From a virus, in the IMG/VR virus record IMGVR_UViG_3300022916_000011, positions 1 to 64,000 of that record: 64,000 nt of DNA. One strand, given 5' to 3'. The translations under genes were made by a program, and so were the position numbers. Of the stretch, positions 1,186-14,890 are shown piece by piece (position 1 is the stretch's first letter; each line of letters starts with the position of its first letter). The notes below the pieces were generated by a model. It ran no database searches, had not been told where the DNA came from, and saw only the letters and a list, made by a program, of their open reading frames with translations.

Positions 1186-1461
1186 TTATAGTGTTGCGAA
1201 AAATGCTACCACCCTTTTAATAAGATGGACATTCTTAATACTCTTAAATCTGTGGGATTGTGGTGTTCCTTCAATACGATACCAATTATAAAATAATTTG
1301 TAATAGTATTGGATTTTTTCTCGTTCCTTTTCTGTGAAAGTTTCATTGTATTTTCTACGTTTACTTCCATGGTTTTTCTGCTTCCACATCTCTACAATGA
1401 TGGGGGTCTGTAAATCGTCAAGTTCCTTGTTGCCAAGTTCAATCAGAAATATTGGTTTCAT
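1186..1461 (-). CDS. Small basic hypothetical protein (91 aa)
   Basis: Two ATGs lie near the 5' end. The AGAAAGGAG site directly abuts the one at 1467, so the ATG at 1461 (MKPIFLIELG), with about 6 bases of spacing, is the better start. The middle of the protein is basic and aromatic (EREKIQYYYKLFYNWYRIEG). A GTAAACTCTAA box and a GGTGGGGG/CCCCCACC hairpin lie upstream, so it appears to open a transcription or processing unit. Function unknown. Confidence 0.75.
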   Translation of the reverse strand: MKPIFLIELGNKELDDLQTPIIVEMWKQKNHGSKRRKYNETFTEKEREKIQYYYKLFYNWYRIEGTPQSHRFKSIKNVHLIKRVVAFFATL

Positions 1462-1534
1462 TTTCATCTCCTTTCTTAATTAGAGTTTACCCTTCTTGCC
1501 TCCACTAAACGAAATGCTTAGTGAAAATAAGAAA

Positions 1535-1554
1535 GGTGGGGGAATACCCCCACC
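1535..1554. terminator. GC-rich hairpin after the DUF932 gene
   Basis: Perfect 8-bp stem GGTGGGGG/CCCCCACC with an AATA loop, just 3' (minus strand) of the DUF932 gene. It has no long T tract. It belongs to a family of hairpins between leftward units and could be a weak terminator or an RNA-processing and stabilising structure. Confidence 0.6.
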
Positions 1555-1565
1555 TCTGCTATCTC

Positions 1566-2417
1566 TTAATATTTCCGGAGTAAGTTCATAACCTGATCCG
1601 TTTTGGTCATTCTAACAATTGGAGAATCTAAATCCCGTAAATATTGAGTAGAAGCCATTGCTACATCCCAAAGATTAGGGGGTACATTCCCTTTAGTAGT
1701 TTCATTGAGTGAGTACCCAACACCATCCATGGGCAGAGCCAATACCTCTGGTAATTGTTTTTTACCAAAAGGAAGTTTTTCTTGAATCTCAACCCAATCG
1801 GGTGCGGTAAGCTGGCGTTCAGCCCAATGTTTCCAGATACCAGTTTCATCAGCAAATTCCATCATACCGATCTTCATATTCTCCACCATAGCAGAGATTG
1901 AAAGTCCAAGACCGTGTTTCTTTTTATCAGAAAATGCAGACTTTCCAATGGTCAACCCATTAGTACAGACCAAAACAATAGCACCACCCGTAAAGGATGG
2001 TTCCCACATACCGTCATGTGAACTTTTGATTTTAATATTAGGAGTTACCTGTTGACCTTCACGAATGGTAATGGGAGCACACTCATTGAATTTTAATTCA
2101 AAAATGAATTTATTCCCGTCTTGAAGAAGTTGAATGTTTGCTGTGGGAGTACCGTATTCTTCTAGTTTAGCCATAGCTTTCTCAGCATGCCAGATAATTT
2201 CTTCATACTGAAGAATTTCATATTTGCGGTTGGATACATCTGAAGCTACATATGCCAGATGCTCTTCATCCTTGTAGTCAACGATGATTCCCATTTTGCT
2301 TTCTGCACGATGATGTTGCCTACGCCCATACCAAATAGGTTCTTTTCTTGCATAGGGGAAATCTATTTCGGGGTATTTTTCCCTCACTTCTGCCATAATA
2401 TCGTCTACAAATGCCAT
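1566..2417 (-). CDS. DUF932-family phage/plasmid protein
   Basis: A 283-residue protein. Its central part (about 130-175) has the pattern of DUF932 (phage/plasmid-like TIGR03299 group): a GMWEPSFTGG stretch followed by VLVCTNGL and a conserved hydrophobic and charged region. The family is common on phages and plasmids and its biochemical role is not established. The start is set by GAGAAAGGAG upstream. A textbook promoter (TTGACA-N17-TATAAT, 2453-2481) is immediately upstream, so expression should be strong and early. The family call rests on motif memory, not a search. Confidence 0.75.
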   Translation of the reverse strand: MAFVDDIMAEVREKYPEIDFPYARKEPIWYGRRQHHRAESKMGIIVDYKDEEHLAYVASDVSNRKYEILQYEEIIWHAEKAMAKLEEYGTPTANIQLLQDGNKFIFELKFNECAPITIREGQQVTPNIKIKSSHDGMWEPSFTGGAIVLVCTNGLTIGKSAFSDKKKHGLGLSISAMVENMKIGMMEFADETGIWKHWAERQLTAPDWVEIQEKLPFGKKQLPEVLALPMDGVGYSLNETTKGNVPPNLWDVAMASTQYLRDLDSPIVRMTKTDQVMNLLRKY

Positions 2418-2452
2418 GTTCGTTCTCCTTTCTCAATTTAGGGTTTAACTAC

Positions 2453-2481
2453 ATTATAATTTTTTTTACTGTAAATGTCAA
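2453..2481 (-). promoter_or_regulatory. Consensus sigma70-type promoter
   Basis: On the minus strand TTGACA (2481-2476), a 17-base spacer and TATAAT (2458-2453) match consensus perfectly. The predicted start falls at about 2446, inside the TTAAACCCTAA box found upstream of many genes here. It drives the DUF932 gene and those to its left. Confidence 0.9.
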
Positions 2482-2494
2482 GAGATTAATTCGA

Positions 2495-3268
2495 TTAAAA
2501 GTAGGCACTTTGCCAATCATCTTCTTCATAATCAAATTTACTAAGGTATTTCTCCATTTCGTTCTTCACTTCAATTTTAAAGTCTTTTACTTTGGAGAAG
2601 ATAAATTCTGGTTTATCCTGATTTTTGTAAGATACGTCACACCCCCTTATAATATTTCCTTTACAATTTAAGTAGACTGCTCCTTCACTTATTCTTGTTC
2701 TTTCATAATCGTATTCCTCCAGTTTAAATTTTTCCGGTTTAATTTCTTTCATCCCCCGCCCATCAGCCCTACCTTGATTGATAAGACTGAATCCCTCATC
2801 AATTTTACCAATTGTATTCCTTTTGTGGATGAAATCTTCCATACCACATTCGTACTCAAAATATTCTTCTAGCCTATAAAAGAAGTTCATATTATCATCA
2901 TGGAATTGATCATTGGAAACATCAACGCTGGAGATTTCATTCTCAGAACAGAATTGATACCAGGAGTACAGTATGTCACAAAATGCTCGCCTATATTGCT
3001 TCCCGTTAGTAGCAACGTAAAAGTTACCCACTTCAATATTCTTCCATCTACAGATTCCTAATGTTTCCTCCATAACTTTAATTCCCGATGGTAAGGAAGG
3101 TTCACCCCCTGTAAATGTAATTGAATTGATATAGTCCACTTGAGAAAAAATAGACCCTAAATATTTTCTGTCCATAGTAAGTTTCTGTGGTTCACCACGT
3201 AGGCAATGCGCACATTGCATATTGCAGTGCCTCGTTGTTTCTATTACCAGATTATCCAACTGTAACAT
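2495..3268 (-). CDS. Radical SAM protein
   Basis: A 257-residue protein with a radical SAM cluster motif at C15-x3-C19-x2-C22 (CNMQCAHC), which would bind a 4Fe-4S cluster and S-adenosylmethionine, followed by TFTGGEPSL, the SAM-binding GGE motif. Further cysteines near the C-terminus (NCKGNIIRGCD) might hold a second cluster. The upstream ATG at 3280 is part of the GGAGG ribosome site, so the ATG at 3268 is chosen; it overlaps the preceding gene by 17 bases. Substrate unknown. It does not look like QueE, and a peptide or nucleotide target is equally open. Confidence 0.85.
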   Translation of the reverse strand: MLQLDNLVIETTRHCNMQCAHCLRGEPQKLTMDRKYLGSIFSQVDYINSITFTGGEPSLPSGIKVMEETLGICRWKNIEVGNFYVATNGKQYRRAFCDILYSWYQFCSENEISSVDVSNDQFHDDNMNFFYRLEEYFEYECGMEDFIHKRNTIGKIDEGFSLINQGRADGRGMKEIKPEKFKLEEYDYERTRISEGAVYLNCKGNIIRGCDVSYKNQDKPEFIFSKVKDFKIEVKNEMEKYLSKFDYEEDDWQSAYF

Positions 3269-3554
3269 TTTTACCTCCATTGTCCCAATTTCTATCTAGC
3301 CTATTCAAGAGTTCGTAATACTCATTATAATAAACTTCTTCAGGATCATCACTGTCTGGATAGGTAAATGCTGCAATAGCATTATCTGAATTCATTATTC
3401 CGGGGTTGGGTGCATTCTCCCAACGAAGAATAACGATTTTTTCTCCATCTTTCGTTATCCATTCACCGAGAAGATCACAGAAAAGGTTTCTCCTTGTAAT
3501 CTTCAATCTTTCTTTCCTATCATGTTCTTTCTTCATTTCTAAAAAATCTGGCAT
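3252..3554 (-). CDS. Hypothetical protein (100 aa)
   Basis: Starts MPDFLEMKKEHDRKE after an AAAAGGAG site. The N-terminus is basic and the rest acidic, with a DPEEVYYNEYYELLNRL helix near the end. Its 3' end overlaps the radical SAM gene, implying translational coupling and possibly a shared task. No family recognised. Confidence 0.75.
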   Translation of the reverse strand: MPDFLEMKKEHDRKERLKITRRNLFCDLLGEWITKDGEKIVILRWENAPNPGIMNSDNAIAAFTYPDSDDPEEVYYNEYYELLNRLDRNWDNGGKNVTVG

Positions 3555-3584
3555 AATACACTCCTTTTATTAGGGTTTTAAGTG

Positions 3585-3634
3585 AATTCCAACATATAGT
3601 GGGGGTATAAGTTACCCCCACCTATTTTGGAATT
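3585..3634. terminator. Nested hairpin between leftward units
   Basis: Outer arms AATTCCAA/TTGGAATT (3585-3592/3627-3634) enclose a 9-bp GC-rich stem GTGGGGGTA/TACCCCCAC. This is one of the best examples of the recurrent AT-arm plus GC-core hairpin. It lies just after the DUF2786 gene and before a TTAAAACCCTAA box. It has no T tract, so its role as terminator or processing site is open. Confidence 0.6.
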
Positions 3635-4334
3635 AACCTATTGCTGCCATCTTCTGAGATCCATTAACACCCTTGCTAAGACTGACACGATCGCCAGCAG
3701 CTTGACCTTTAGCCCATACTGACCTGTTTTCAGTAATAACTGGACGATTACCTGTTCTAAGTCTCGGAAAGGTTTTCTTAGTGAATGCTTCCGTAGCTGC
3801 TTTCTTCACAGTTACCAAAGCCAAAGAATCAGAGGTTTTAATCTCCTGTCTTTTCACATACAACATTTCCATTCTGTGAATAATTCTGTTGACCATTGAA
3901 TGAGCAAAGGTATTCCTTATTGATCTACCCATCCCTTGATTTTCAACATCAGTAATTCTACCAACAGTCCTTCTAAGATACTTTGTGAAGTAGATCGTCA
4001 TATCCACATCTGATTTAGTACCCAAAAATGCGAGGTGCCAACCATCTCTTTTGGTATATCGGACGGTTTTAACATCGAAACACTCTCCTATACCATTAGC
4101 TAGAACAGCTTCCCACATAACTCCTCTCATTGTTCTACCTTTAAGATCCATTCTGATCATTGAAGCTGTAACTTCTTCCTCGGTTTGACAATCGCCAAGG
4201 GTTAGAGAGTGTTTTTCCATAAAAAATGCTGCTTTTTCCATTGCCAATGTAGCTTCTGCTTCATTGGGTGAAGTCGCCAGTCTCATCAACTTCTGGATTT
4301 TATCCAAGACTTGATCTCTTGTCATTTCTGCCAT
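3633..4334 (-). CDS. DUF2786 domain protein
   Basis: A 233-residue protein. Residues about 7-45 (KIQKLMRLATSPNEAEA...) match the DUF2786 pattern of a short helical domain found in phage and bacterial proteins of unknown function. The rest is basic and rich in Arg and Lys, which suggests nucleic-acid contact. It precedes the radical SAM pair in transcription order. Family call from recognition only. Confidence 0.75.
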   Translation of the reverse strand: MAEMTRDQVLDKIQKLMRLATSPNEAEATLAMEKAAFFMEKHSLTLGDCQTEEEVTASMIRMDLKGRTMRGVMWEAVLANGIGECFDVKTVRYTKRDGWHLAFLGTKSDVDMTIYFTKYLRRTVGRITDVENQGMGRSIRNTFAHSMVNRIIHRMEMLYVKRQEIKTSDSLALVTVKKAATEAFTKKTFPRLRTGNRPVITENRSVWAKGQAAGDRVSLSKGVNGSQKMAAIG

Positions 4335-4335
4335 T

Positions 4336-4554
4336 TTATTTCTTCCCCCCTACCACTTTAAGATCCGCTCTTTTTTGATCGGGTTCTCTGAGATCCATAT
4401 GAGAGTCCGATATGACACATCTGTAAAGACTTCTCTCCGTCATTACTTGAAATGCTTCAAATGCGGGATCATCGAAATCTAATTCCTCAAATCTAATTTC
4501 ATTAGCGCCTTCTTCTTCACCATTTTTTTCCAATACAACAATGTGATTACCCAT
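4336..4554 (-). CDS. Small acidic hypothetical protein (72 aa)
   Basis: Starts MGNHIVVLEKNGEEEG. The protein is acidic, with an LDFDDPAFEAFQVM segment. It is separated by one base from the DUF2786 start and by three from the gene before, so it is clearly in an operon. No recognised domain. Confidence 0.7.
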   Translation of the reverse strand: MGNHIVVLEKNGEEEGANEIRFEELDFDDPAFEAFQVMTERSLYRCVISDSHMDLREPDQKRADLKVVGGKK

Positions 4555-4557
4555 AAA

Positions 4558-4815
4558 TTATTTCCCTTTCTTAATTTGATTGTATTCACGAATTACATCG
4601 GCCCCACACCAGGGACAATGCTTGATACCGTATATCTCCTTTGAATGGAAGGAAATGTCTGCTAATTTAGCTGTATCATTTTCCACACTAAAATTTTCTC
4701 TTCTGATCCATTCACTCATAATATCGCAACATGGGTGAATTGATTCCAGCATGTCAGCACTTTGACATCTATTGGTTCGCAAAGTGTACGTTAAATGCTC
4801 GTCCAGTTTTCTCAT
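4558..4815 (-). CDS. Small zinc-ribbon-like protein (85 aa)
   Basis: The AGAAAGGAGAGTGAA leader fixes the start at 4815 (MRKLDEHLTYTL) rather than the longer frame. The C-terminal half has HCPWCGADVI, a CPWC knuckle, and an upstream HPCCD that could complete a metal site. Such small zinc proteins are common in phages. Function unknown. Confidence 0.7.
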   Translation of the reverse strand: MRKLDEHLTYTLRTNRCQSADMLESIHPCCDIMSEWIRRENFSVENDTAKLADISFHSKEIYGIKHCPWCGADVIREYNQIKKGK

Positions 4816-4828
4816 TTCACTCTCCTTT

Positions 4829-5143
4829 CTAAGTGTACCGTTCATTAATAAGAGTGTCACAAGCCTTTACCAAAGCATCGTGACCATAACCCTTCAAGGA
4901 TTCAGCGATCAACTTTTTCACCTTGACATCACCTTTACTGGCATCGTAAATTCGATCACCAATGAAGTCCCCCACCGAGGCGGGGTCGTTATAGAATTCA
5001 TCTGCCCGTTTTTCAACTTCCATGTAATCAATCTCATCTTGATAATTATTAGTTTCCATCCTAACGGAACCCTCTGCAAAATCGTAACATGCAGATTGCA
5101 GATCGGAATAAATCTGACTTGCTGCCGCATCTATATCTACCAT
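4829..5143 (-). CDS. Hypothetical protein (104 aa)
   Basis: Start chosen at 5143 (MVDIDAAASQIYSDL) because GGAGGAGAATAAG lies directly before it; a longer in-frame extension lacks a ribosome site. Predicted helical and acidic. It starts two bases after the end of the upstream gene. No family recognised. Confidence 0.7.
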   Translation of the reverse strand: MVDIDAAASQIYSDLQSACYDFAEGSVRMETNNYQDEIDYMEVEKRADEFYNDPASVGDFIGDRIYDASKGDVKVKKLIAESLKGYGHDALVKACDTLINERYT

Positions 5144-5144
5144 C

Positions 5145-5471
5145 TTATTCTCCTCCAAATATTTTTGAGATATTTGCGTATATGTCAGCCTCTTTTCTAA
5201 TATCTGGTGCCGACAGTCTTTCAATGTACGGGTATTGCCATGCGTCACCTAATGGTACATGGATCAATTCTAAAGGTTTCAGTGAAAGGATCATGTAAAC
5301 AGCGTAGCCGTCTGCTGCGGGGAATTGTACCACCTTACCTTTGTATCTCCCCCTACCATTCTCCTTACACCATGCAGTCAGTTTATCCAGATATTCTTTT
5401 TCTTGTTTTTGCCAATCACTTGACCAATCCATATGTGGTGGGTCAAATGGTACTGAGTAAACTTTCCCCAT
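5145..5471 (-). CDS. Hypothetical protein (108 aa)
   Basis: Two in-frame ATGs (5477, 5471). The GAAAGGAG site touches the first, so 5471 (MGKVYSVPFDPPH) is preferred. Rich in Trp, Tyr and Pro with an alpha/beta look. A perfect 17-bp inverted repeat and a TGTAAACCCTAA box lie upstream. Function unknown. Confidence 0.7.
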   Translation of the reverse strand: MGKVYSVPFDPPHMDWSSDWQKQEKEYLDKLTAWCKENGRGRYKGKVVQFPAADGYAVYMILSLKPLELIHVPLGDAWQYPYIERLSAPDIRKEADIYANISKIFGGE

Positions 5472-5496
5472 ACTCATCTCCTTTCGTTAGGGTTTA

Positions 5497-5545
5497 CATT
5501 AATTAATTAAGTGAACGTATATAAGGCCCACTTAATTAATTAATG
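5497..5545. repeat. Perfect 17-bp inverted repeat around a TATATA core
   Basis: Arms 5497-5513 and 5529-5545 (CATTAATTAATTAAGTG and its exact complement) flank a 15-base loop containing TATATA. It abuts the next hairpin (5545-5564). It could be an operator embracing a -10 box, a terminator stem or a processing site. Confidence 0.75.
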
Positions 5546-5564
5546 GGGTATCTCAGGATACCCC
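5545..5564. terminator. Hairpin after the GHKL ATPase gene
   Basis: Stem GGGGTATC/GATACCCC with a TCAG loop, directly 3' of the rIIA-like gene on the minus strand. Same family as the other GC-rich intergenic stems. Confidence 0.6.
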
Positions 5565-5572
5565 ACCCTCCT

Positions 5573-7126
5573 TTACTTTTTGAGCTTAGTAATTTTGTCG
5601 TAAATACGGCCTGACTTCCAAGTGTTTTCTTCTACCGCTTCTCTCTTTGAGGAGTAACTTTCATGATGGTATCCCTCATAGAAATGGGTAACTTCATGAA
5701 TGGCTATCTGTTTGATTTTGAGTCCCAAAATCTTTCTATTTGAAAGACTGTATTTTTCAAAGATTTTATATGGATGTAGCAAGAACACCTTCTTATTTTT
5801 AATGGTTCCAGAAAACTCAAATTCTCCTTGCTCATCTCTGCTCACGATGGTAGAATCTTTCTCCGAAGTGTAACTTGCAAGAGATTCTCCAGTCATGAAA
5901 CCTGTACTGAATCTTCCGTAGATGTGATTGTCCAACAAGACCTGTTTTATAGTCTCAGTCCACATACTAGCAAGAGTCCTTGCTCTCTTGGTGGTCAGAA
6001 ACTTCCTCATTTCAGTAAGATCACCCTTTTCACACTTGGTAAGGAATGACGATTTGTACCCAACGAATTTAAGGAAACTTTCTTTATCACCAAAATCCAT
6101 ATCATCGTCAATTCCCGTTGTTATCCTAGAGGTTGTGAGTTTGGGGTCCAGACCTTGTTGAAGTGCAATCTTAGCCATCATTTTGAGTAATTCAGGTGAG
6201 ACTTTATTCCAATGTACTTCATTAAAAATTTCGTCAACATCTTCCTCTCTAATTTCAGCATCATCTTCACCTGGAACTGTTGCTACAATTTCCACGGTAT
6301 CAGGTTTCAAAGTGGAGACTCTATCTAACATTATTTCTTCCAAGAATTTTTCAGCTTTTCGTTTTGGTTCCCACTTCATACCATCTCTGTTCGATGTAAG
6401 AAATTCCAGAGACTTTTGATTCAGTTCAAGGGTCAGTTTGGCTTCAGCATTCTTCAGCGTCTCTCCGATATACCAGTTATGCATCCAAATACCGTTAATT
6501 CTGACACTGATAGATTCATCCCAACCATTTTCGGTATCCATGTAAAGGTCTCCGACATCAGGTATGGTTTTCAAAAAATTACCTTTAGGGGAGATGGTAT
6601 AAATATTCTTTCCATTAACTTGAATAGAAGTGTCAGTTTCAATTTTCTCCGCTACATCTGTAAATTCCCGCACCAACCAATCAAAGTCTTCCTCTTTCTG
6701 AATTAAGATTGAGACTTTAGTACCTTCCTGAAATTCATCAATCTCTGTAATATCGAAACGATCCCCTGCACCAGTTATCAGGAAGTTGTGCGTGTGAATT
6801 TCATAAGAGATCCAAGAGAAAAATAGAATTTCTTTAGCTTTCCCAAAAGCCCCTGCTGCATCATCACTCTGTTTAAATGAACCCCCCAGGAACAGCAACT
6901 TTTCAGTAATAACGTCCAAATCCATACCGCAACCATCGTCTGTAACAACGATGGTTCTGGATTCTTCATCACTTGTCACTAATATTGTGGTCGCTCCAGC
7001 GTCTATGCTGTTCTGATAGAACTCCCTAGCCAGTGCTTCTCTGAAATTAGAATAGTCATGTTTGGCCATCTTCAGAAAGTATTCGTTTGGAATACCAATT
7101 CGACCATTCTCAACTAACTTTCCCAT
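5573..7126 (-). CDS. GHKL (Hsp90-like) ATPase with C-terminal HEXXH motif, rIIA-like
   Basis: A 517-residue protein. The N-terminus has the Bergerat ATP-binding fold: the N box EFYQNSIDAG (E35, N39, D42), the G1 box DDGCGM (63-68) and a glycine-rich GAFGKAKEI near 95. This resembles T4 rIIA and related phage GHKL proteins. The C-terminus carries HEVTHFYEGYH (H477-H481), the zinc-metallopeptidase HEXXH signature, so the protein may combine an ATPase with a zincin-like domain. The ATG at 7126 is preferred over a TTG because GAAAGGAGTTGAGA precedes it. rIIA-type proteins act at the membrane or nucleoid in exclusion and anti-defence; a role here is inference. Confidence 0.8.
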   Translation of the reverse strand: MGKLVENGRIGIPNEYFLKMAKHDYSNFREALAREFYQNSIDAGATTILVTSDEESRTIVVTDDGCGMDLDVITEKLLFLGGSFKQSDDAAGAFGKAKEILFFSWISYEIHTHNFLITGAGDRFDITEIDEFQEGTKVSILIQKEEDFDWLVREFTDVAEKIETDTSIQVNGKNIYTISPKGNFLKTIPDVGDLYMDTENGWDESISVRINGIWMHNWYIGETLKNAEAKLTLELNQKSLEFLTSNRDGMKWEPKRKAEKFLEEIMLDRVSTLKPDTVEIVATVPGEDDAEIREEDVDEIFNEVHWNKVSPELLKMMAKIALQQGLDPKLTTSRITTGIDDDMDFGDKESFLKFVGYKSSFLTKCEKGDLTEMRKFLTTKRARTLASMWTETIKQVLLDNHIYGRFSTGFMTGESLASYTSEKDSTIVSRDEQGEFEFSGTIKNKKVFLLHPYKIFEKYSLSNRKILGLKIKQIAIHEVTHFYEGYHHESYSSKREAVEENTWKSGRIYDKITKLKK

Positions 7127-7405: not shown

Positions 7406-7506
7406 GATACACTCCTTTCAGTATGGGTTCACATTTACTTCCTTAAAAGAGACAGTATCTCCTTTAAGTAAGTGGGGTAGGGGTCTCCCCCCACCCACTC
7501 TAGGTT

Positions 7507-8259
7507 TTAAGCATTGACTGCCATATCCATCTGAGTTTCTTCTTCAACAACTTCCTCAGACGGCTCTTCTACTTTCTCCTCAACTTTAGCTTCACCAGTT
7601 TCCTCAGCTTCAGCTTCGGCCGCTTTTGCAGCGTCACGCTCTGCTTTCCATGCAATGTACGCTTTGGTATCAGAACGTGGCACGATGTTGTCATTGTTGA
7701 CATCCACCACACTGATGATTCCAGTAGCGGTTTCGTCAATCACCCACCCCTGTTTCCTACGACCAGTGAAGTGAGCCACAATGCTCTTTTCGTTCCTGAA
7801 CTGTACGTTAAGTTGCTCAGCCGCACTTGCAGAGGTTTCGAGAAATTCGGCCATGGTAGCACCGACAACCAGAAGTTTATCGAAAGCCAAACACATGGAA
7901 CCAGCTTCAACACCCCCGATATCCTCAATCAGTTCGTTGATGTCTTTGTACTTGCTTTTGACGGCAACCGCTTTACCAGTACGGGGTCCAGTCTCTTTTT
8001 TCGGTTTGGGTGCATTTTTGACCGCTTCCTTCTCTGCTTTCTCAGAAGTAGCCGTTCTGCAAGCTACCAGAGAGGGACAATCTTCACAATCTGGAGAAGC
8101 TACATCGAATGCTCCAAATGCACCGCAATCCTCACTTTCAGGGGTAGCATCAACAACTACTGCCTCATCAAGCATGTCCTGCAATTGGGTTTTCGTCAAT
8201 TTCGTGGTAGTTTCAATTCCCATCTCGGTCAGCGTGTTACGGATTTCTTCTTTAGTCAT
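7507..8259 (-). CDS. Acidic protein with SAP/HeH-like N-terminus and Cys motif
   Basis: A 250-residue protein. Residues 1-32 look like a short SAP or HeH helix-extension-helix nucleic-acid-binding motif (EEIRNTLTEMGI...TKTQLQDML). Residues about 45-68 carry C-x(12)-C-x2-C-x5-C (CGAF...CEDCPSLVAC), a probable zinc or iron site. The C-terminus is a long Glu/Ala/Val-rich acidic tail. A strong promoter (8485-8513) and a leader of about 220 bases precede it. Codon and GC content are higher than neighbours, consistent with high expression. Function unknown. Confidence 0.75.
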   Translation of the reverse strand: MTKEEIRNTLTEMGIETTTKLTKTQLQDMLDEAVVVDATPESEDCGAFGAFDVASPDCEDCPSLVACRTATSEKAEKEAVKNAPKPKKETGPRTGKAVAVKSKYKDINELIEDIGGVEAGSMCLAFDKLLVVGATMAEFLETSASAAEQLNVQFRNEKSIVAHFTGRRKQGWVIDETATGIISVVDVNNDNIVPRSDTKAYIAWKAERDAAKAAEAEAEETGEAKVEEKVEEPSEEVVEEETQMDMAVNA

Positions 8260-8480
8260 GATATAATTCCTTTCTTACTCTGTGGTAAACAATCTTTTAA
8301 GCAGTATCTCAAGCCCCACCCTGTTGAAGCGCCATGCTTAAAATTTGTTTTACCTATATAGTGGGTCGGGTTAATGGTTTTCCATCGACTGTGGTGCTTC
8401 TCACGAAGCGAGAAGCGGGATTATAACACTGGTTTCAGGGTTAATTTTCAAGGTTGCGATTTCAGTTGGCGTTCATTTGT
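8260..8480 (-). promoter_or_regulatory. Long structured 5' leader of the acidic SAP-like gene
   Basis: About 220 bases between the promoter at 8485-8513 and the gene start hold no sizeable frame. They contain a GCTTCTC/GAGAAGC hairpin (about 8393-8413) and several tiny uORFs, one reading MALQQGGA. Such a long leader is exceptional in this compact block and suggests RNA-level control. Confidence 0.5.
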
Positions 8481-8484
8481 ATCT

Positions 8485-8513
8485 AATATACATTTTTTTA
8501 CTGGGAAAGTCAA
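8485..8513 (-). promoter_or_regulatory. Strong sigma70-type promoter
   Basis: Minus strand TTGACT (8513-8508), 17-base spacer, TATATT (8490-8485). The bases after the -35 (TTTCCCAGT) resemble those in the promoters at 13368, 16751 and 19061, so it belongs to the same phage promoter set. Confidence 0.85.
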
Positions 8514-9145: not shown

Positions 9146-9185
9146 GAGTTCCTCCTTTCCAGTTAGAGTTATAAAATTCTTTAAA

Positions 9186-9205
9186 GGGGTAGTTTCCTAC
9201 CCCCT
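9186..9205. terminator. GC-rich intergenic hairpin
   Basis: GGGGTAG/CTACCCC with a short TTTC-containing loop between the 9215-9394 gene and the 8807-9145 unit. Same hairpin family as at 1535 and 3599. Confidence 0.5.
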
Positions 9206-9214
9206 CTCAGTATC

Positions 9215-9394
9215 CTACAACATTAATTCATCAATGTAATCAGGTTCCAGACTGAACCATTCAGCACAAATGTCGAGTGGCATTTCACCCCCATCTAGTC
9301 TTTCAAGGAGATCTTCTCTCGCCTCCTCAACCATATCATCAGCATCTTCTTTAGTCATTCCATCTCTCCTCATCAAAATTTCTGCAATGCCCAT
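9215..9394 (-). CDS. Small acidic hypothetical protein (59 aa)
   Basis: ATG at 9392-9394 after GGAGGACTAAA. Reads MGIAEILMRRDGMTKEDAD and ends at a TAG at 9215. Strongly acidic and helical, resembling short phage proteins with a DAxxxVEEA helix. One base separates it from the upstream gene. Confidence 0.75.
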   Translation of the reverse strand: MGIAEILMRRDGMTKEDADDMVEEAREDLLERLDGGEMPLDICAEWFSLEPDYIDELML

Positions 9395-9395
9395 T

Positions 9396-9800
9396 TTAGT
9401 CCTCCATCTTTTTTAGATTCTGTACGATATGCAGTGCCAGAGTTATGTAGTCATCCAGTTGACCTTCTGTGGGTTCTTCAACATCCCAATCCCTATCATC
9501 CTGAATACCGTACAGAGTGTCACACCCACTACAGGAACCGTACCAGACTTTGACATACCAGTAGTTATGAGGCTGGTAGGTGCTTTCAGGAATCACGAAA
9601 AGCAGTGTCCCCTGATAATCACCATCGTTGATTATTGTTATATTGTCAGGGTCTGGATTGTATTCGCAATCATCCTCATTCCGTACCAGAGTGATAACTG
9701 CTTTAACGATGTCCTTGTATTGCGTGGGTTCGTTCTCCTTGAACTGATTTCTCAGTTCGCTTTTACCGTCCATGAATCTTGCAACGAATTTGTCAATCAT
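9396..9800 (-). CDS. Hypothetical protein (134 aa)
   Basis: Starts MIDKFVARFMDGKSEL after GGAGGAGTAAA. Central WYVKVWYGSCSGCDTLYGI holds a CSGC pair, and the C-terminus is an acidic helix (YITLALHIVQNLKKMED). I recall similar phage proteins with the SCSGCDTLxGI signature, all uncharacterised. Tight operon position. Confidence 0.75.
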   Translation of the reverse strand: MIDKFVARFMDGKSELRNQFKENEPTQYKDIVKAVITLVRNEDDCEYNPDPDNITIINDGDYQGTLLFVIPESTYQPHNYWYVKVWYGSCSGCDTLYGIQDDRDWDVEEPTEGQLDDYITLALHIVQNLKKMED

Positions 9801-9801
9801 T

Positions 9802-10005
9802 TTACTCCTCCTCTGGTACTCCCTCTAAAGTAACGTAGTCACCATCCTTAAGACATTTGATAGCAAAATCAAACATCGCCTGCATTCTACCATCGAACTT
9901 GCCAGATTTAGTGTGACCTACATTAGCTTCCCAAATGTCAGTGATGTATCCACCGTCCTTGGGGTTGCCATTAAATGACACAACTCGGATTGCTTTTAGT
10001 TTCAT
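9802..10005 (-). CDS. Small hypothetical protein (67 aa)
   Basis: Starts MKLKAIRVVSFNGNP after AGGAGGATGAC. Compact alpha/beta composition with no special motif. One base from the next gene. Function unknown. Confidence 0.7.
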   Translation of the reverse strand: MKLKAIRVVSFNGNPKDGGYITDIWEANVGHTKSGKFDGRMQAMFDFAIKCLKDGDYVTLEGVPEEE

Positions 10006-10014
10006 GTCATCCTC

Positions 10015-10209
10015 CTATATAACAGTTATCCAGTTATCATGCGTAACTTCAACACTCAATTCCAAATCACATTCATCATGGTATCGTTCCAATTTGATGC
10101 TAAGAATCGTATCATCCTCAAACAAGATTTCGATGAGATCCTCATCCATTTGTCTAATACCCTTGACTTTTCTACCATCCAATGCTTTTATGATTTCTTT
10201 CATGTCCAT
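10015..10209 (-). CDS. Small acidic hypothetical protein (64 aa)
   Basis: Starts MDMKEIIKALDGRKV with GGAGAAGAATA before the ATG. The ATG overlaps the stop of the methyltransferase-like gene by one base. The predicted beta-rich second half (ILFEDDTILSIKLERY) suggests a small Sm- or OB-like fold, but that is speculative. Confidence 0.65.
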   Translation of the reverse strand: MDMKEIIKALDGRKVKGIRQMDEDLIEILFEDDTILSIKLERYHDECDLELSVEVTHDNWITVI

Positions 10210-10802
10210 TATTCTTCTCCTTTCTTGTAGTATCCAACCTTCACACGATCATTTATACCGCTCCATGATTTCATATCAAAATCTGGTACACTTTCATCCT
10301 CTTTGAAATTTTCGTGAAATTCATCTGTGGCAGTACAACCTCCCCAACCTTCACCTATATAAATAATGGGTCTGTCTGAACCCCACTCCTCACATATGTA
10401 TTCAATCTCTGGATCTTCATAAGGTGGCCACGATACGATCAGTACTTCCGCATCAGAATATTTCTTGACAGCACTCATACCATCCAGGTTCTCTACTATG
10501 CTGAAGGGTTTACCCTTGGAGTGACGACAACCCACCCATGATTGATCATCAGTGGACTTGATGTTCACACCGTAATCATTCAGTGCTTTGGACAACCAAC
10601 CATGACCTGCCATGATTTCGAGACATTTACGTTTCCCCAACCATAGAGCAAGGTCTTTAGTCCAGATTTCATCAATGACTGCCCACATACCCCTGCTAGT
10701 AGCTTCATTCCTATACTCATAATTATAGAAGGAATGACATTTTAAAGGTTCAGGGGGTATAAATCCAGTGTCAAGAAAATTTATGAAAGCCTTTGGTGTC
10801 AT
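10209..10802 (-). CDS. Methyltransferase-like protein (197 aa)
   Basis: Residues around 58-66 (CLEIMAGHGWLSKAL) look like the SAM-binding motif I (E-x2-A-G-x-G) of class I methyltransferases, a later TDDQSW could be motif II, and VSWPPYEDPE resembles the (D/N/S)PPY catalytic loop of amino-methyltransferases, with Ser replacing the usual Asp or Asn. A nucleic-acid or small-molecule substrate is possible. It overlaps its upstream neighbour by 4 bases. Confidence 0.6.
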   Translation of the reverse strand: MTPKAFINFLDTGFIPPEPLKCHSFYNYEYRNEATSRGMWAVIDEIWTKDLALWLGKRKCLEIMAGHGWLSKALNDYGVNIKSTDDQSWVGCRHSKGKPFSIVENLDGMSAVKKYSDAEVLIVSWPPYEDPEIEYICEEWGSDRPIIYIGEGWGGCTATDEFHENFKEDESVPDFDMKSWSGINDRVKVGYYKKGEE

Positions 10803-11266
10803 TTTATATTCTCCCTTTTATCAATGATGAACTCAACCCATTCCTTTGCATCTTTTAGAAAGTTCATTCCAGTTTCTTTTTTCATATTGGCTATTACATA
10901 TTTGATAGCTTTGATCTTACCTCCATCAAGATAAATTTGATACACTCGATCCGAATATGAACGAACTCTGGTATCCTTACAAGTTAGATCAATATATCCC
11001 GCACTTACAGCACCAATGAATATTTTTGCTGTCCAAAAAGGAGGAGCAGTTCTGCTGCTTTTTGTAAGAATCCCAAAGGTTTCAAATGACATAGATTCAT
11101 AATCCCCACCTTCATCACCAAATCTTCTGATAAAGGAAGATTCAGAACCCCTGGGACAGAAGTATAGATCGTTTTCTTCTGGAGACCCATCTGTTGTGTA
11201 TATGAAGTTTCCCATGAATTTGCAATTTTCACAGTCATGTTCCCACCACGGTTTTTCTTCTTTCAT
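10799..11266 (-). CDS. Hypothetical Cys-containing protein (155 aa)
   Basis: The GGAAGGAG site favours ATG 11266 (MKEEKPWWEHDCENCKF) over the longer frame at 11284. The N-terminus has CENC and a later CPRG that could form a zinc site. The C-terminal half is alpha/beta. Stop overlaps the following start. Unknown function. Confidence 0.65.
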   Translation of the reverse strand: MKEEKPWWEHDCENCKFMGNFIYTTDGSPEENDLYFCPRGSESSFIRRFGDEGGDYESMSFETFGILTKSSRTAPPFWTAKIFIGAVSAGYIDLTCKDTRVRSYSDRVYQIYLDGGKIKAIKYVIANMKKETGMNFLKDAKEWVEFIIDKRENIK

Positions 11267-11610
11267 TTCATTATCTCCTTCCAAAGGATTGATGTTTTGA
11301 TACCCTTAATTTTTCTTAAAGCATCCCCCACCCCTTTCAGGGTTCCTTTGTTCACCCAAAATCTGTAATGCACTGGATGGTCAGGTTCAACGTAGCTGAT
11401 CCAGTAAATGTTCTTGAATTTGGGGTCTTCCATGATTCGTGCTGCTGAGTTAATGTCGGTCCTGATGTAGATAGTCCCGTTAGCACCCTTGAAGTATGAC
11501 TTTGGCGTACTCAGATCATTCAAGATAGCTTCCCGTAGTATTGAATGGTTAGGGTTTTCGTTGGAGCTACAATCTCTTGCTTCTCCGTCTAATAATTTGT
11601 AGTGATTCAT
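11263..11610 (-). CDS. Hypothetical protein (115 aa)
   Basis: Starts MNHYKLLDGEARDCS after GAAAGGAGCTGAA. Alpha/beta content with an aromatic core (YWISYVEPDHPVHYRFWV). A TGTAAACCCTTAA box and a strong hairpin (11658-11684) lie upstream, so it opens a unit. No family recognised. Confidence 0.7.
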   Translation of the reverse strand: MNHYKLLDGEARDCSSNENPNHSILREAILNDLSTPKSYFKGANGTIYIRTDINSAARIMEDPKFKNIYWISYVEPDHPVHYRFWVNKGTLKGVGDALRKIKGIKTSILWKEIMK

Positions 11611-11657
11611 TTCAGCTCCTTTCTTTGTTTAAGGGTTTACACCAATCCATCATGAAG

Positions 11658-11684
11658 GTCTACCACAGTACAGCCGTGGTAGAC
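11658..11684. terminator. Strong intergenic hairpin
   Basis: Perfect 9-bp stem GTCTACCAC/GTGGTAGAC with a 9-base loop, flanked by partly complementary ATCCAT-CATGA / TATCATGGAT arms. It lies between the 11700 and 11263 genes, just before a TGTAAACCC box. No T tract. Confidence 0.6.
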
Positions 11685-11699
11685 TCTATCATGGATCAA

Positions 11700-11879
11700 T
11701 TATACAACACCCCCATAGAATTTTTGATACAGGCTTTCAAGTCCCATTGCAGCATTTCTACCAAAGTCCTGAACTAAATCAGTAAGATCAGCACCATTCT
11801 GCCGCATTGCAATAAAAATTTTCAAGTCTCTATTGCCCACAATCTTTCTCTTATTTATTTTCCTCAGTTTATAACTCAT
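11700..11879 (-). CDS. Small basic protein (59 aa)
   Basis: AAGAAAGGAGTACTA fixes the start at 11879 (MSYKLRKINKRKIVG). The N-terminus is very basic and a helical C-terminus follows (GADLTDLVQDFGRNAA), so a nucleic-acid-binding role is conceivable. Its ribosome site sits just after the stop of the upstream membrane protein gene. Confidence 0.65.
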   Translation of the reverse strand: MSYKLRKINKRKIVGNRDLKIFIAMRQNGADLTDLVQDFGRNAAMGLESLYQKFYGGVV

Positions 11880-11892
11880 TAGTACTCCTTTC

Positions 11893-12027
11893 TTAGTCAA
11901 TGTAGCCGAATGATAGAAAAATGATCAATCCCATAAGCGCAAATGTAAAAGTCGCCCCGAGTACACCCTTCATCATTTCCCAAACACTGAGATTTTGATT
12001 CTTCTTCCATTCACCATGAACTAGCAT
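11893..12027 (-). CDS. Small membrane protein (44 aa)
   Basis: A 44-residue frame MLVHGEWKKNQ... with one hydrophobic segment (FTFALMGLIIFLSFGYI, about residues 27-43). GGAGGTAAGTA precedes the ATG, which overlaps the stop of the upstream gene (TAATG). A single-pass inner-membrane peptide; function unknown. Confidence 0.7.
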   Translation of the reverse strand: MLVHGEWKKNQNLSVWEMMKGVLGATFTFALMGLIIFLSFGYID

Positions 12028-12146
12028 TACTTACCTCCATTAACGTCTTGTTTATTAGCTGCAATTTGGACTAATATGTAGGTGTCGGAATTTATATTCC
12101 CTTCACCCTCTGCCTCCCAAAGATCAATAATCAGTTTGTAAAACAT
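12027..12146 (-). CDS. Small hypothetical protein (39 aa)
   Basis: ATG 12146 with GGGAG 7 bases upstream; reads MFYKLIIDLWEAEGEG and ends in a TAA overlapping the next ATG. Its own start overlaps the upstream gene by 23 bases. The size is at the limit of recognition, but start and stop coupling on both sides supports it. Confidence 0.6.
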   Translation of the reverse strand: MFYKLIIDLWEAEGEGNINSDTYILVQIAANKQDVNGGK

Positions 12147-12270
12147 GGTCTAGCTCCCAATTTTCTTCAAAAGGTACTTGATTAGGAAGTTCGGTTAGAT
12201 TCAATTCGGTCCCGATTGACTCAAATGTTTCTGAATCAATATTACGCCACACACCGTCTTGCATTTCCAT
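12124..12270 (-). CDS. Small acidic protein (48 aa)
   Basis: GAAAGGAGAGCAACAA precedes ATG 12270 (MEMQDGVWRNIDSET). Strongly acidic and probably disordered or helical. Overlaps both neighbours. Unknown function. Confidence 0.65.
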   Translation of the reverse strand: MEMQDGVWRNIDSETFESIGTELNLTELPNQVPFEENWELDHVLQTDY

Positions 12271-12397
12271 TTGTTGCTCTCCTTTCTTCGATCATACGGG
12301 TTTCAAACCATTCAGCTTTGGCTTTGGTGAATACCAAAATCATGTCTTCCAATGAAAAAGTCTTGCGTAGTTCCTTAAACCTTTCAAAAAGGTACAT
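12242..12397 (-). CDS. Small basic helical protein (51 aa)
   Basis: AAAGGAGGTAGTAAA sets the start at 12397 (MYLFERFKELRKTF). Helical with a basic tail ending NGNARRCVA. Overlaps the next gene by 29 bases, in another frame. Upstream are a TGTAAACCCC box and a GGAACCC/GGGTTCC hairpin (about 12439-12463). Confidence 0.65.
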   Translation of the reverse strand: MYLFERFKELRKTFSLEDMILVFTKAKAEWFETRMIEERRATNGNARRCVA

Positions 12398-12438
12398 TTT
12401 ACTACCTCCTTTGTTGGGGTTTACATACATAATTGATT

Positions 12439-12463
12439 GGAACCCCCTCACTAGCAGGGTTCC
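12439..12463. terminator. Intergenic hairpin
   Basis: GGAACCC/GGGTTCC stem with an 11-base loop, downstream of the J-domain gene on the minus strand and upstream of a TGTAAACCCC box. Member of the recurring hairpin family. Confidence 0.5.
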
Positions 12464-12481
12464 AACCTATATGACTGCAAA

Positions 12482-13027
12482 CTATCCTAACGCACTCAAC
12501 CTTTCTTCATCTAATCTCTGTCTCCCGAAAGTGCTGACCCTGCGTTCATGGTCCCATTTGTCTCTCGACTTCCAGTTTTTCTTCTTACTGAATGACCATG
12601 CAGGTGCCCAATAGTATTCATTGGTCCCTTTCTTCTGTTTCAACCCGGCTGCTTTCAGGGTATCACTCAAATCTGAGGAAGCACCCCGTACCCAATACCA
12701 TGCTCCTACCCTGTCTCTCTTGATACCAGGAATGTGCTTCACTTTATTGTGCATGTCCATCATCTGTTGAAAAAGGTGATTGGTTCCCGTTGAATCTGTT
12801 GCTGAAGGTCCCCAAGAAATGTTCCACTTACCCAATTTATCTTTCAGAACTTCAAATGCTTCCAGAATCGCTCTGGTCATTCCCAGAGATTCAGCATTTT
12901 GCCCAATGATGTCGGGGTGCCATTCTTTCAGCGCAGTATTCTTAGCCGTTTTCAAATGTTCAAATGTATCACCTTTCGGACCCAAGATACCCAATGCAAC
13001 TTTGATTCCCATTTTGCTTTTAGCCAT
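12482..13027 (-). CDS. J-domain-like protein (181 aa)
   Basis: GAGAAAGGAGTTAGAGAA fixes the start at 13027 (MAKSKMGIKVALG). Residues about 10-65 look like a DnaJ J-domain, with the diagnostic HPD at 37-39 between two helices (KNTALKEW, then AFEVLKDKL). The C-terminal half has an RVGAWYWVRG segment and a basic tail. J-domains recruit host DnaK; a phage J-protein could redirect the chaperone for replication or morphogenesis. That role is inference; the HPD context is seen directly. Confidence 0.7.
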   Translation of the reverse strand: MAKSKMGIKVALGILGPKGDTFEHLKTAKNTALKEWHPDIIGQNAESLGMTRAILEAFEVLKDKLGKWNISWGPSATDSTGTNHLFQQMMDMHNKVKHIPGIKRDRVGAWYWVRGASSDLSDTLKAAGLKQKKGTNEYYWAPAWSFSKKKNWKSRDKWDHERRVSTFGRQRLDEERLSALG

Positions 13028-13055
13028 TTCTCTAACTCCTTTCTCAATTTGGGGT

Positions 13056-13304
13056 TTATGTATTATAGATCGTGTCCTTATCAGGGTCGTATGCCGTACA
13101 CATATTTCTCTCATAAATGTCCCGAATAATGTTACCATTGAAGAAATCACCTCTTCCAAAGACAGAGGGGGTTTGAGGGTGTCCGTGATTGTGAAATGCT
13201 TCATTCAATTTCCGAACTACTTTGTGAACGGGTACTTCCTCATCACCAATAAAATTGCTGATGAAGTCAATAATTTCCGCATCAATGTTATTGAAATCTA
13301 CCAT
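13056..13304 (-). CDS. Hypothetical protein (82 aa)
   Basis: GAAAGGAGCTAGAATC sets the start at 13304 (MVDFNNIDAEIIDFI). Acidic N-terminal helices followed by a basic stretch. It is the first gene after the perfect promoter at 13340-13368, so probably well expressed. No family recognised. Confidence 0.7.
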   Translation of the reverse strand: MVDFNNIDAEIIDFISNFIGDEEVPVHKVVRKLNEAFHNHGHPQTPSVFGRGDFFNGNIIRDIYERNMCTAYDPDKDTIYNT

Positions 13305-13339
13305 GATTCTAGCTCCTTTCAAGATTTTAAATGAACCAT

Positions 13340-13368
13340 ATTATAACAGTTTTTGTGGGAAATGTCAA
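13340..13368 (-). promoter_or_regulatory. Consensus sigma70-type promoter
   Basis: Minus strand TTGACA (13368-13363), 17-base spacer beginning TTTCCCAC, TATAAT (13345-13340): a perfect consensus match. Drives the 13056-13304 gene and probably the whole run down to about 8.5 kb. Confidence 0.92.
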
Positions 13369-13404
13369 GCAATATCAACACGTTCCCACATCAACTGCTT
13401 TTAG

Positions 13405-13830
13405 TTAATTCCTTTCATTTGGGTCAGACTCAATAAACAACCGTCCGTGAACTACCGTGAACCATTGATCTTGAATGTCCAAGAAACCCATGCTCACTTC
13501 TTCCTCAAACGCTTTGACCGCTTTAACAGGTGTTAAGGTTCCTGCACAAAAGTCGTAGCAGTATTGCCGATACTCTTGCATTGTGGAAATCTTTACCAAA
13601 CCATCTTCTGGAAAGGTTTCGTATCGGGGGTCAGCTTCCTCAAACTTGACCAGTTCAAAATTAGTGGCATTGTTCATGGGGTTAGCAATGAGCAGGAAAT
13701 GGTTCATAACCTCAGGAATGAAATTCTCGAAACCCATCTCCCAAAATTCGGGGGTTTCAGAATAGATAACGTCCGCTTTCACTGTACCCAAATCAGTCAT
13801 TCTTTTTTCCACAATCTTTTTTAAATCCAT
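13405..13830 (-). CDS. Hypothetical protein (141 aa)
   Basis: ATAGGAGTTGTTAAGATT precedes ATG 13830 (MDLKKIVEKRMTDLG); the upstream ATG overlaps the ribosome site. Alpha/beta, acidic, with one Cys pair (YCYDFC). Upstream lie a CGTAAACCCTTGA box and a nested hairpin. It is the last gene before the 13340 promoter. Unknown function. Confidence 0.7.
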   Translation of the reverse strand: MDLKKIVEKRMTDLGTVKADVIYSETPEFWEMGFENFIPEVMNHFLLIANPMNNATNFELVKFEEADPRYETFPEDGLVKISTMQEYRQYCYDFCAGTLTPVKAVKAFEEEVSMGFLDIQDQWFTVVHGRLFIESDPNERN

Positions 13831-13877
13831 AATCTTAACAACTCCTATCAAGGGTTTACGTTAATGTTTCATAAAGG

Positions 13878-13904
13878 TGGGGGTGCAGGAACACACCCCC
13901 CTGG
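13878..13904. terminator. Nested GC-rich hairpin
   Basis: A GGTGGGGGTG/CACACCCCCC core flanked by TGTTT-ATA / TAT-AAACA arms, between the 13915 and 13405 genes and next to a CGTAAACCC box. Same architecture as 3585-3634. Confidence 0.5.
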
Positions 13905-13914
13905 CTATCAAACA

Positions 13915-14277
13915 TCAACCGACAACTGCAAAGGCCACGGTCTGATAAATGACGTACACATTGTCCTCATCGACCCACATCAATTCATCTGTGTCATGGG
14001 AATCTCTTTCAATGAATGCGTTAAAGCAATCCACTACGTGCTTCACACAATGGAATCTAAACCCTATCTCTTCCAATCGTGCTAAGAGATTATCTTTGAA
14101 CATCACACCAAGGAGTCTGGTATCGTTACAGCAGTGGATTCTTTTTTCACCATAGTCAACAAATAAATGGCAAACCATTTGGGTTAGTGCTTTGGACATA
14201 TCAAGGTACTGGTCAGCAACTTTATCTCCATACTGAGATAAAACATGATCATATTCCTCTTTCGCATAATTGTTCAT
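13915..14277 (-). CDS. Hypothetical protein (120 aa)
   Basis: TTGGAGGTTGTT lies directly before ATG 14277 (MNNYAKEEYDHVLSQ). Helical N-terminus, then CHLFVDYGEKRIHCCN and FHCVKHVVDCF, with several Cys and His. This and the next two upstream genes (14369, 14917) share an almost identical GGAGGTTGTTATGAA or GGAGGTAGTTATGAA leader. Confidence 0.7.
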   Translation of the reverse strand: MNNYAKEEYDHVLSQYGDKVADQYLDMSKALTQMVCHLFVDYGEKRIHCCNDTRLLGVMFKDNLLARLEEIGFRFHCVKHVVDCFNAFIERDSHDTDELMWVDEDNVYVIYQTVAFAVVG

Positions 14278-14368
14278 AACAACCTCCAATCTTCTAGGGT
14301 TTACATCAATGCTTCACTTCAAAGGGTGAAGTTATGGAAACCCTCACCCTTATCATCAAGCGTTGAAG

Positions 14369-14818
14369 TTACGGAGCGATATTCTCAGCAAATTTTCGCA
14401 AGTTACTCAATGCGGACATAAACTTGCTGAATTTCGGGTATGAATCGTGCAGGAGCTCACTGTATAACCACATCATATGTGGATCATTATACCCTTCATC
14501 ATTCATGATTTCTATTTCCCGTACCAATGCTGAGAAATCATTGATCAGTTCGGGAGTAACATTGTCGCTGAAGAAGAATAGGTCCCCATTAGCATCGTAC
14601 TCTTGCGTGTATCCCAATTCTTCTAACCATTTTTCAACATCAGAGAGCATGGGATGATGTTTGAACTCTTCCCCGAATGCTCTGCACACATCGTCATAAT
14701 GGAGTATCTTCACTTCATCAATGTTGTACCAAGGAATATCAGATGCTTTTTCCCCAATAACCATGTTCAAACACGCTAACTCTGGTCTGTCCCAACAAGT
14801 CGCTCTTTCTTTTTTCAT
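14369..14818 (-). CDS. Hypothetical protein (149 aa)
   Basis: GAAGGAGGTTGTT precedes ATG 14818 (MKKERATCWDRPELA). Acidic, helical; contains WLEELGYTQEYDANGDLFFF. A perfect 12-bp hairpin (CATGCTCTTGAC/GTCAAGAGCATG, 14859-14890) and a TGTAAACCCTTAG box lie upstream. Function unknown. Confidence 0.7.
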   Translation of the reverse strand: MKKERATCWDRPELACLNMVIGEKASDIPWYNIDEVKILHYDDVCRAFGEEFKHHPMLSDVEKWLEELGYTQEYDANGDLFFFSDNVTPELINDFSALVREIEIMNDEGYNDPHMMWLYSELLHDSYPKFSKFMSALSNLRKFAENIAP

Positions 14819-14858
14819 AACAACCTCCTTCATCTAAGGGTTTACAATCAATTCCTAC

Positions 14859-14890
14859 ATTCATGCTCTTGACAATGTCCAGTCAAGAGC
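14859..14890. terminator. Perfect 12-bp intergenic hairpin
   Basis: CATGCTCTTGAC/GTCAAGAGCATG with an 8-base loop between the 14917 and 14369 genes. No T tract on either side; processing or weak terminator element. Confidence 0.6.

What the first reader, a model, noticed from the sequence alone, without database searches (positions are those of the whole stretch)
1440..14870. Recurrent hairpin plus TGTAAACCC box between leftward transcription units
At a dozen places (near 1490, 2446, 3575, 5495, 7430, 11635, 12420, 13065, 13855, 14300, 14840) the minus strand shows the same order: end of gene, hairpin often with AT-rich outer arms and a GC-rich core, (T)GTAAACCCTAA, then AGAAAGGAG and the next ATG. 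At 2446 the box sits at the predicted +1 of a perfect promoter. It may mark mRNA 5' ends made by cleavage at the hairpins, a modular punctuation system I cannot match to a known one.
Basis: seen in the sequence. Interest (0 to 1): 0.65.

Follow-up and report, generated by a model that had tools for sequence, protein, structure and literature searches.

The report
Repeated phage hairpin-box ribosome leader
An uncultured phage places a strong RNA hairpin and a short repeated sequence (TGTAAACCC) just before the ribosome-binding site of most early genes that have an untranslated gap before them, a real arrangement that looks like a new version of leader elements known from phages such as T7 and the cluster K mycobacteriophages.

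Summary
In the leftward early arm of a 77,965-base IMG/VR virus record, 11 starts carry a box (TGTAAACCCTAA, at least 9 of 12 bases) 15-21 nt before the start codon. All have an upstream gap of at least 28 nt; none of 18 starts with gaps under 25 nt has the box (Fisher p=3e-5; shuffled upstreams average 0.3). Nine of the 11 have a hairpin 0-8 nt before the box; the other two have a perfect sigma-70 promoter (2481) or neither (13027). The eight most stable 80-nt windows of the strand are exactly such hairpins. All ten hairpins are stabler on the transcribed strand, so they act as RNA. Only one has a terminator U-tract. A second block (18.6-21.6 kb) uses a sequence-different version. Best reading: a leader cassette (hairpin, unpaired start-associated box, strong Shine-Dalgarno) for early units that cannot rely on translational coupling; hairpins probably also serve as processing or stability elements, as in T7. 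The box as a marker of cleaved 5' ends is not shown, and one boxed start has no hairpin or promoter. No database relative carries this arm, so conservation could not be tested. Closest kinds: cluster K SAS/ESAS, T7 RNase III sites and gene 10 leader, T4 PeSLs.

The parts
1480..1556 (-). Module before gene 1461-1186: hairpins 1556-1533 (with U-rich tail, terminator-like) and 1532-1494, box GGTAAACTCTAA 1491-1480, SD AAGGAG
2438..2481 (-). Perfect sigma-70 promoter TTGACA-17-TATAAT (2481-2453) followed by box GTTAAACCCTAA 2449-2438; no hairpin
3570..3632 (-). Module before gene 3554-3252: hairpin 3632-3587 (19 bp), box TTAAAACCCTAA 3581-3570
5487..5569 (-). Module before gene 5471-5145: GC-rich hairpin about 5564-5545, AT-rich 19-bp hairpin about 5544-5499, box TGTAAACCCTAA 5498-5487
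7422..7500 (-). Module before gene 7405-7154: hairpins 7500-7470 and 7468-7442, box TGTGAACCCATA 7433-7422
9163..9210 (-). Variant module before gene 9145-8807: hairpin 9210-9179, weak box TTATAACTCTAA 9174-9163
11630..11697 (-). Module before gene 11610-11263: hairpin 11697-11644, box TGTAAACCCTTA 11641-11630
12414..12467 (-). Module before the start at 12397: hairpin core 12467-12435, box TGTAAACCCCAA 12425-12414
13049..13060 (-). Box CATAAACCCCAA before gene 13027-12482; no hairpin, no convincing promoter, contains the TAA stop of the gene before
13320..13398 (-). Perfect sigma-70 promoter (13368-13340) overlapping a strong inverted repeat; only a weak box (TTTAAAATCTTG) before gene 13304-13056
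13849..13914 (-). Module before gene 13830-13405: hairpin 13914-13865, box CGTAAACCCTTG 13860-13849
14294..14366 (-). Module before gene 14277-13915: hairpin 14366-14306, box TGTAAACCCTAG 14305-14294
14835..14911 (-). Module before gene 14818-14369: 26-bp hairpin 14911-14845, box TGTAAACCCTTA 14846-14835
19668..21093 (-). Second version of the module at gene junctions 21093-20989, 20703-20649, 20408-20330, 19961-19905, 19724-19668: hairpin GGGGTTGC-N-GCAACCCC, then CAACCC or AAACCC, then (TTTTC)GAGGTG as SD and ATG; copies at 20649-20698 and 19905-19954 are 90% identical over 50 nt
18974..19061 (-). Promoter TTGACA-18-TATACT, then a small hairpin close to the predicted 5' end, CAACACCC, SD GCGAGGTC and ATG (gene 18976-18590)
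34243..34305 (+). Rightward example without box: 20-bp hairpin directly followed by AAAGAAAGGAG (an upstream TTGACT-18-TATAAA promoter is read by eye)

Best explanation
These are RNA leader cassettes in the early arm of an uncultured tailed phage. Each cassette is a strong hairpin starting within about 10 nt of the stop codon in most cases, then an unpaired, sequence-conserved start-associated box (core AACCC, 15-21 nt before the start codon), then a strong Shine-Dalgarno. Genes that follow the previous gene closely (gap under 25 nt) are translated by coupling or re-initiation and need no cassette. Genes after a longer gap get one, so that ribosomes can start afresh. Inferred: the box helps initiation, either by contact with the ribosome or protein S1 (as proposed for the T7 gene 10 enhancer) or through a phage-encoded factor. 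Inferred: the hairpin isolates the start from upstream ribosomes and, as an RNase III-like substrate or end-protecting stem, cuts or stabilises the long transcripts made from promoters about 3-6 kb apart. Shown: position, orientation, link to uncoupled starts, RNA-level folding, lack of U-tracts in 9 of 10. Not shown: any binding factor, cleavage, or effect on expression.
For: Box in 11 of 17 starts with gaps of 25 nt or more and 0 of 18 with shorter gaps, p=3e-5; 1 of 54 rightward control starts. Fixed distance to the start codon. Hairpins z -3.3 to -6.0, the most stable windows of the strand, 10/10 stabler on the transcribed strand, mean difference -5.6 against control -1.8 sd 3.6 kcal/mol, G-U 27 against 9. 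Several cassettes lie between successive predicted promoters (16751, 13368, 8513, 2481), so those genes appear to be read from upstream and the hairpins cannot be full stops. T7 gene 10, 9, 17 and 1.3 leaders show the same order: hairpin, AU-rich element, SD. A second block of genes uses a version with a different hairpin and SD but the same AACCC core.
Against: No relative with this arm was found, so conservation is untested. The host is unknown, so complementarity of the box to host rRNA could not be checked. One long-gap gene (8259) has a long structured leader but no box, and one (13304) only a weak box after a perfect promoter. At least one rightward hairpin (34243) directly precedes an SD without a box. 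Box function is inferred from position alone.
Confidence: 0.55

Rival explanations
1. One reading: an endonuclease (RNase III or another) cuts at the hairpins and the box is the resulting (or transcription-initiated) mRNA 5' end, so the box is an RNA-end signal.
For: Hairpins of about 17-26 bp with AT-rich outer arms and GC-rich core resemble T7 RNase III sites (site identities in T7 from my own knowledge). At 2481 the box lies at the predicted +1. The box starts 0-8 nt after the hairpin.
Against: Box at 13027 without hairpin or promoter; promoter 13368 has only a weak box and 8513 none near its start; at 19061 the hairpin and related box lie inside the transcript. RNase III cuts inside stems, not at their base, so it would not leave the box as the exact end.
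Confidence: 0.2
2. PeSL-like cassettes: the hairpin terminates the upstream transcript and the box is part of a promoter (perhaps for a phage-modified or phage-encoded polymerase) for the next unit.
For: Same order as T4-type PeSLs (terminator stem-loop, promoter, SD); one hairpin (1556-1533) has a good U-tail; copies of the second version look like a duplicated cassette.
Against: 9 of 10 hairpins lack a U-tract. Box to SD is only 3-11 nt, leaving almost no room for a transcription start. No polymerase or sigma factor seen among about 87 proteins scanned with Pfam (not every protein was scanned). The strand already has spaced sigma-70-like promoters.
Confidence: 0.12
3. DNA-level operator or stoperator: the box is the asymmetric binding site of a phage repressor or elongation-blocking protein, oriented with transcription and placed in short intergenic regions, as in cluster A mycobacteriophages.
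For: Asymmetric, one orientation, intergenic, repeated.
Against: Fixed spacing to the start codon and close link to SD and RNA hairpins are not expected of operators; no integrase or repressor was recognised among the proteins scanned.
Confidence: 0.07
4. SD sequestration: the CCC of the box pairs with GG(A)GG of the SD to form a switchable small hairpin.
For: RNAfold pairs box and SD in several leaders, -1 to -5 kcal/mol.
Against: Own pairs are no better than swapped pairs (-4.54 against -4.44 kcal/mol, permutation p=0.38); loops and bulges differ.
Confidence: 0.04

Closest known systems
[quoted passage not shown]
   Same: Short asymmetric repeat tied to translation starts of a subset of non-structural genes, nearly all in one orientation; about half have an inverted repeat just upstream.
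   Different: SAS is GGGATAGGAGCCC and contains the SD; here the box is upstream of the SD with another sequence. ESAS arms are sequence-conserved, carry SigA promoters and were judged not to pair as RNA; here arms differ in sequence, pair well as RNA and mostly carry no promoter.
T7 intercistronic RNase III sites and gene 10 leader with its enhancer (NC_001604; PMC8748333)
   Same: Hairpin of about 20 bp, then a short A/U-rich leader element, then a strong SD; hairpins partition long early transcripts.
   Different: Box sequence differs (TTAACTTTA in T7); RNase III cleavage is untested here; the box is far more regular.
PeSLs of T4-type phages (Arbiol 2010, Comeau 2014; known to me and via PMC4503421; papers not held)
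   Same: Small intergenic regulatory cassettes with a stem-loop between early genes, possibly shuffled by recombination.
   Different: PeSLs combine a terminator with an early promoter; here 9 of 10 hairpins lack a U-tract and most have no promoter.
Stoperators of cluster A mycobacteriophages
   Same: Repeated asymmetric intergenic site oriented with transcription.
   Different: Not tied to start codons or RNA hairpins; repressor-bound DNA sites.

Membership tests
SAS/ESAS (cluster K) | 13-bp GGGATAGGAGCCC overlapping the SD | tested here: not met
   Box is TGTAAACCCTAA, 3-11 nt upstream of the SD
SAS/ESAS (cluster K) | Repeat located just upstream of translation starts of a gene subset, one orientation | tested here: met
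   11 starts, all minus strand, 15-21 nt before the start codon
SAS/ESAS (cluster K) | Sequence-conserved 17-bp inverted repeat carrying a SigA promoter | tested here: not met
   Arms differ between modules; promoter only at 2481 (and overlapping the repeat at 13368)
T7-type RNase III processing sites | Intercistronic RNA hairpin of about two turns upstream of the next SD | tested here: met
   Mostly 17-26 bp stems or paired stems, z -3.3 to -6.0, RNA-level bias
T7-type RNase III processing sites | Cleavage by host RNase III | not testable with these tools
   Needs RNA end mapping in a wild-type and an rnc host
T7 gene 10 type translation enhancer | A/U-rich element TTAACTTTA upstream of the SD | tested here: not met
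   Box differs, though weak boxes (517, 7126, 9145) are somewhat similar by eye
PeSL (T4-type) | Terminator stem-loop with U-tract | tested here: not met
   1 of 10 hairpins
PeSL (T4-type) | Early promoter between stem-loop and SD | tested here: not met
   No sigma-70 promoter between hairpin and SD in the modules; only 2481 has a promoter before its box
Intrinsic terminators | GC hairpin followed by U-tract | tested here: not met
   Only 1556-1533 fits
Rfam RNA families | Match to a curated covariance model | tested here: not met
   No match in the window
Stoperators | Binding of a phage repressor to the DNA site | not testable with these tools
   No binding data

The most novel reading that the evidence does not exclude
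The phage runs a private translation-initiation code: a phage factor (RNA or protein) recognises the AACCC box and channels ribosomes to early units, and each block of the early arm has its own version of box, hairpin and SD (AAGGAG in one block, GAGGTG in a block that avoids GGA/TCC), so whole gene blocks can be switched at the level of translation.
Probability: 0.12. Interest if true: 0.75.

Novelty: new variant of a known kind. Interest (0 to 1): 0.42.

Why it matters
Elements tied to phage translation starts (SAS) have lacked a known function since 2011. A second, independent set with clear RNA hairpins and a clean contrast between coupled and uncoupled genes in one genome makes the translation-start hypothesis directly testable with reporters, and would give a modular leader part for expression work. 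If no effect is found it is still a useful natural catalogue of intercistronic RNA stems.

Tried and rejected
SD sequestration by the box: no covariation. Known RNA family: none. Box elsewhere: exact-pattern scans of viral and genome contigs gave scattered hits in unrelated contigs, and none of the viral loci checked carries an array like this one. Relatives of left-arm genes: none close in phages or viral contigs. RNR search gave only a same-lineage contig that does not reach the arm. Capsid gene found 33 viral loci, three of them essentially the same phage, but none carries this arm. One distant relative with a single shared left-arm gene (48% identity) shows scattered hairpins and no box, and that gene is unboxed in both, so it is uninformative. 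T7 stable windows as a control are not comparable because T7 has a higher GC content. PeSL papers are not held.

Full report
What the record is. The window is the first 64,000 bases of a 77,965-base IMG/VR virus record, 37% GC. It encodes a large terminase with an intein, a class II-like ribonucleotide reductase, glycosyltransferases, a GP7-type capsid protein and tail proteins. Transcription runs leftward from about 22 kb to 1 and mostly rightward after it. Host unknown. Two other contigs are the same phage (99.9%) but do not reach the left arm.

Observation. I listed 36 leftward starts in 1-15.8 kb by SD and reading frame (refined). Eleven have at least 9 of 12 matches to TGTAAACCCTAA 15-21 nt before the start codon, and all of these have an upstream gap of 28 nt or more. 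None of the 18 starts with smaller gaps has it (Fisher p=3e-5). Shuffling the same upstream sequences gives 0.33 on average and at most 4 in 2000 trials. Of 54 rightward starts one reaches the threshold. The information peak is on AACCC. In the gaps, folding gives z of -3.3 to -6.0 in the ten hairpin modules, 9 of them before a good box, and the eight most stable windows of the whole strand are these modules. The strict order hairpin-box-SD therefore holds for 9 of the 11 places. The exceptions are 2449 (promoter instead) and 13060 (neither).

RNA or DNA. If the inverted repeats were DNA sites, imperfect pairs would be as often A-C as G-T on the transcribed strand. All ten hairpins are more stable on the transcribed strand, G-U pairs are 27 against 9, and the mean energy difference is -5.6 kcal/mol against -1.8 (sd 3.6) in random windows of the same strand (module averages computed from its rows). 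This points to selection on RNA. Only one of ten has a U-tract.

Place in transcription. Consensus promoters on this strand lie at 19061, 16751, 13368, 8513 and 2481, spaced about 2.3 to 6 kb apart. Up to three boxed hairpin modules lie between two of them, so the hairpins cannot be strong terminators unless each box restarts transcription. The 3-11 nt from box to SD leave no room for a sigma-70 promoter. These are consensus matches, not mapped starts.

Second version. Between 18.6 and 21.6 kb short genes are separated by GGGGTTGC-N-GCAACCCC hairpins, then CAACCC or AAACCC, then (TTTTC)GAGGTG and ATG; two junctions are 90% identical over 50 nt. In the same region a promoter at 19061 is followed by a small hairpin, CAACACCC and SD, so the set can also stand at the front of a primary transcript. 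On the rightward strand a 20-bp hairpin at 34243-34305 directly precedes AAAGAAAGGAG without a box.

Mechanism. Shown: position, strand, association with uncoupled starts, RNA-level folding. Inferred: the hairpin isolates the start and is a likely substrate for double-strand-specific processing or a stabiliser of ends; the box assists initiation. T7 gives a working precedent: gene 10, 9 and 17 leaders are hairpin, A/U-rich element, SD, and the gene 10 element raises translation though its contact is disputed between 16S rRNA and protein S1 (PMC8748333). That several of the T7 hairpins I folded are RNase III sites is from my own knowledge; the record does not annotate them.

Comparison. Cluster K phages carry SAS at translation starts and, in about half, ESAS inverted repeats (PMC3203893). 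Those authors found little support for RNA pairing of the arms, and later work places SigA promoters in ESAS (PMC11373665). Here the reverse holds: unrelated arms, good RNA pairing, mostly no promoter. It works like SAS plus T7 leaders but is not a member of either by sequence. I rate it a new variant of a known kind.

Limits. No relative with the arm was available, so conservation, the strongest test, is open. The consensus was taken from the sites tested. Gene starts are predictions. One 134-residue protein model made in passing was of low confidence and was not used.

Noticed in passing
19586-21991: A stretch virtually free of GGA/TCC (3 seen, 77 expected from the neighbouring arm) and of GGC/GCC (0 against 22) on both strands; runs of 1,657 and 748 bp without GGA/TCC against 284 bp for the next longest in the 78-kb record. 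Genes there use GAGGTG instead of AAGGAG as SD.
   Followed up: partly
15201-19500, minus strand: Neighbouring stretch with the opposite bias: TCC 125 against 47 expected, TTCC 62 against 14, GGGG 38 against 7, GGA depleted; long parts without clear genes and with repeats such as GAACTTCC and CCTAACTTCC.
   Followed up: partly
21094-21498 and 18590-18976, minus strand: Two paralogous genes (53% identical proteins, no family found): one has 0 TCC, the other 14 (synonymous-codon simulation expects about 3.5 in each, P<0.0005 for the excess); a natural pair showing that the bias acts on nucleic acid, not protein.
   Followed up: partly
21995-22150: Repeats of GGATTTCCTGCCTATTTTT (minus strand) at the point where transcription diverges, possibly origin iterons.
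   Followed up: no
13398-13345 and 8533-8500, minus strand: Two promoters share an inverted repeat GGGAA-about 20 nt-TTCCC flanking the -35 box (TTGACATTTCCCAC, TTGACTTTCCCAG), perhaps an operator.
   Followed up: no
8257-8490, minus strand: A leader of about 230 nt with a strong hairpin (GCTTCTCGCTTCGTGAGAAGC) between a promoter and gene 8259-7507; no Rfam match.
   Followed up: no
46575-49121, minus strand: Large terminase gene carries an intein (PF14890).
   Followed up: no
L150-L182: 33 viral loci encode relatives of this capsid protein (54-100% identity), pointing to an unnamed group of uncultured phages.
   Followed up: partly
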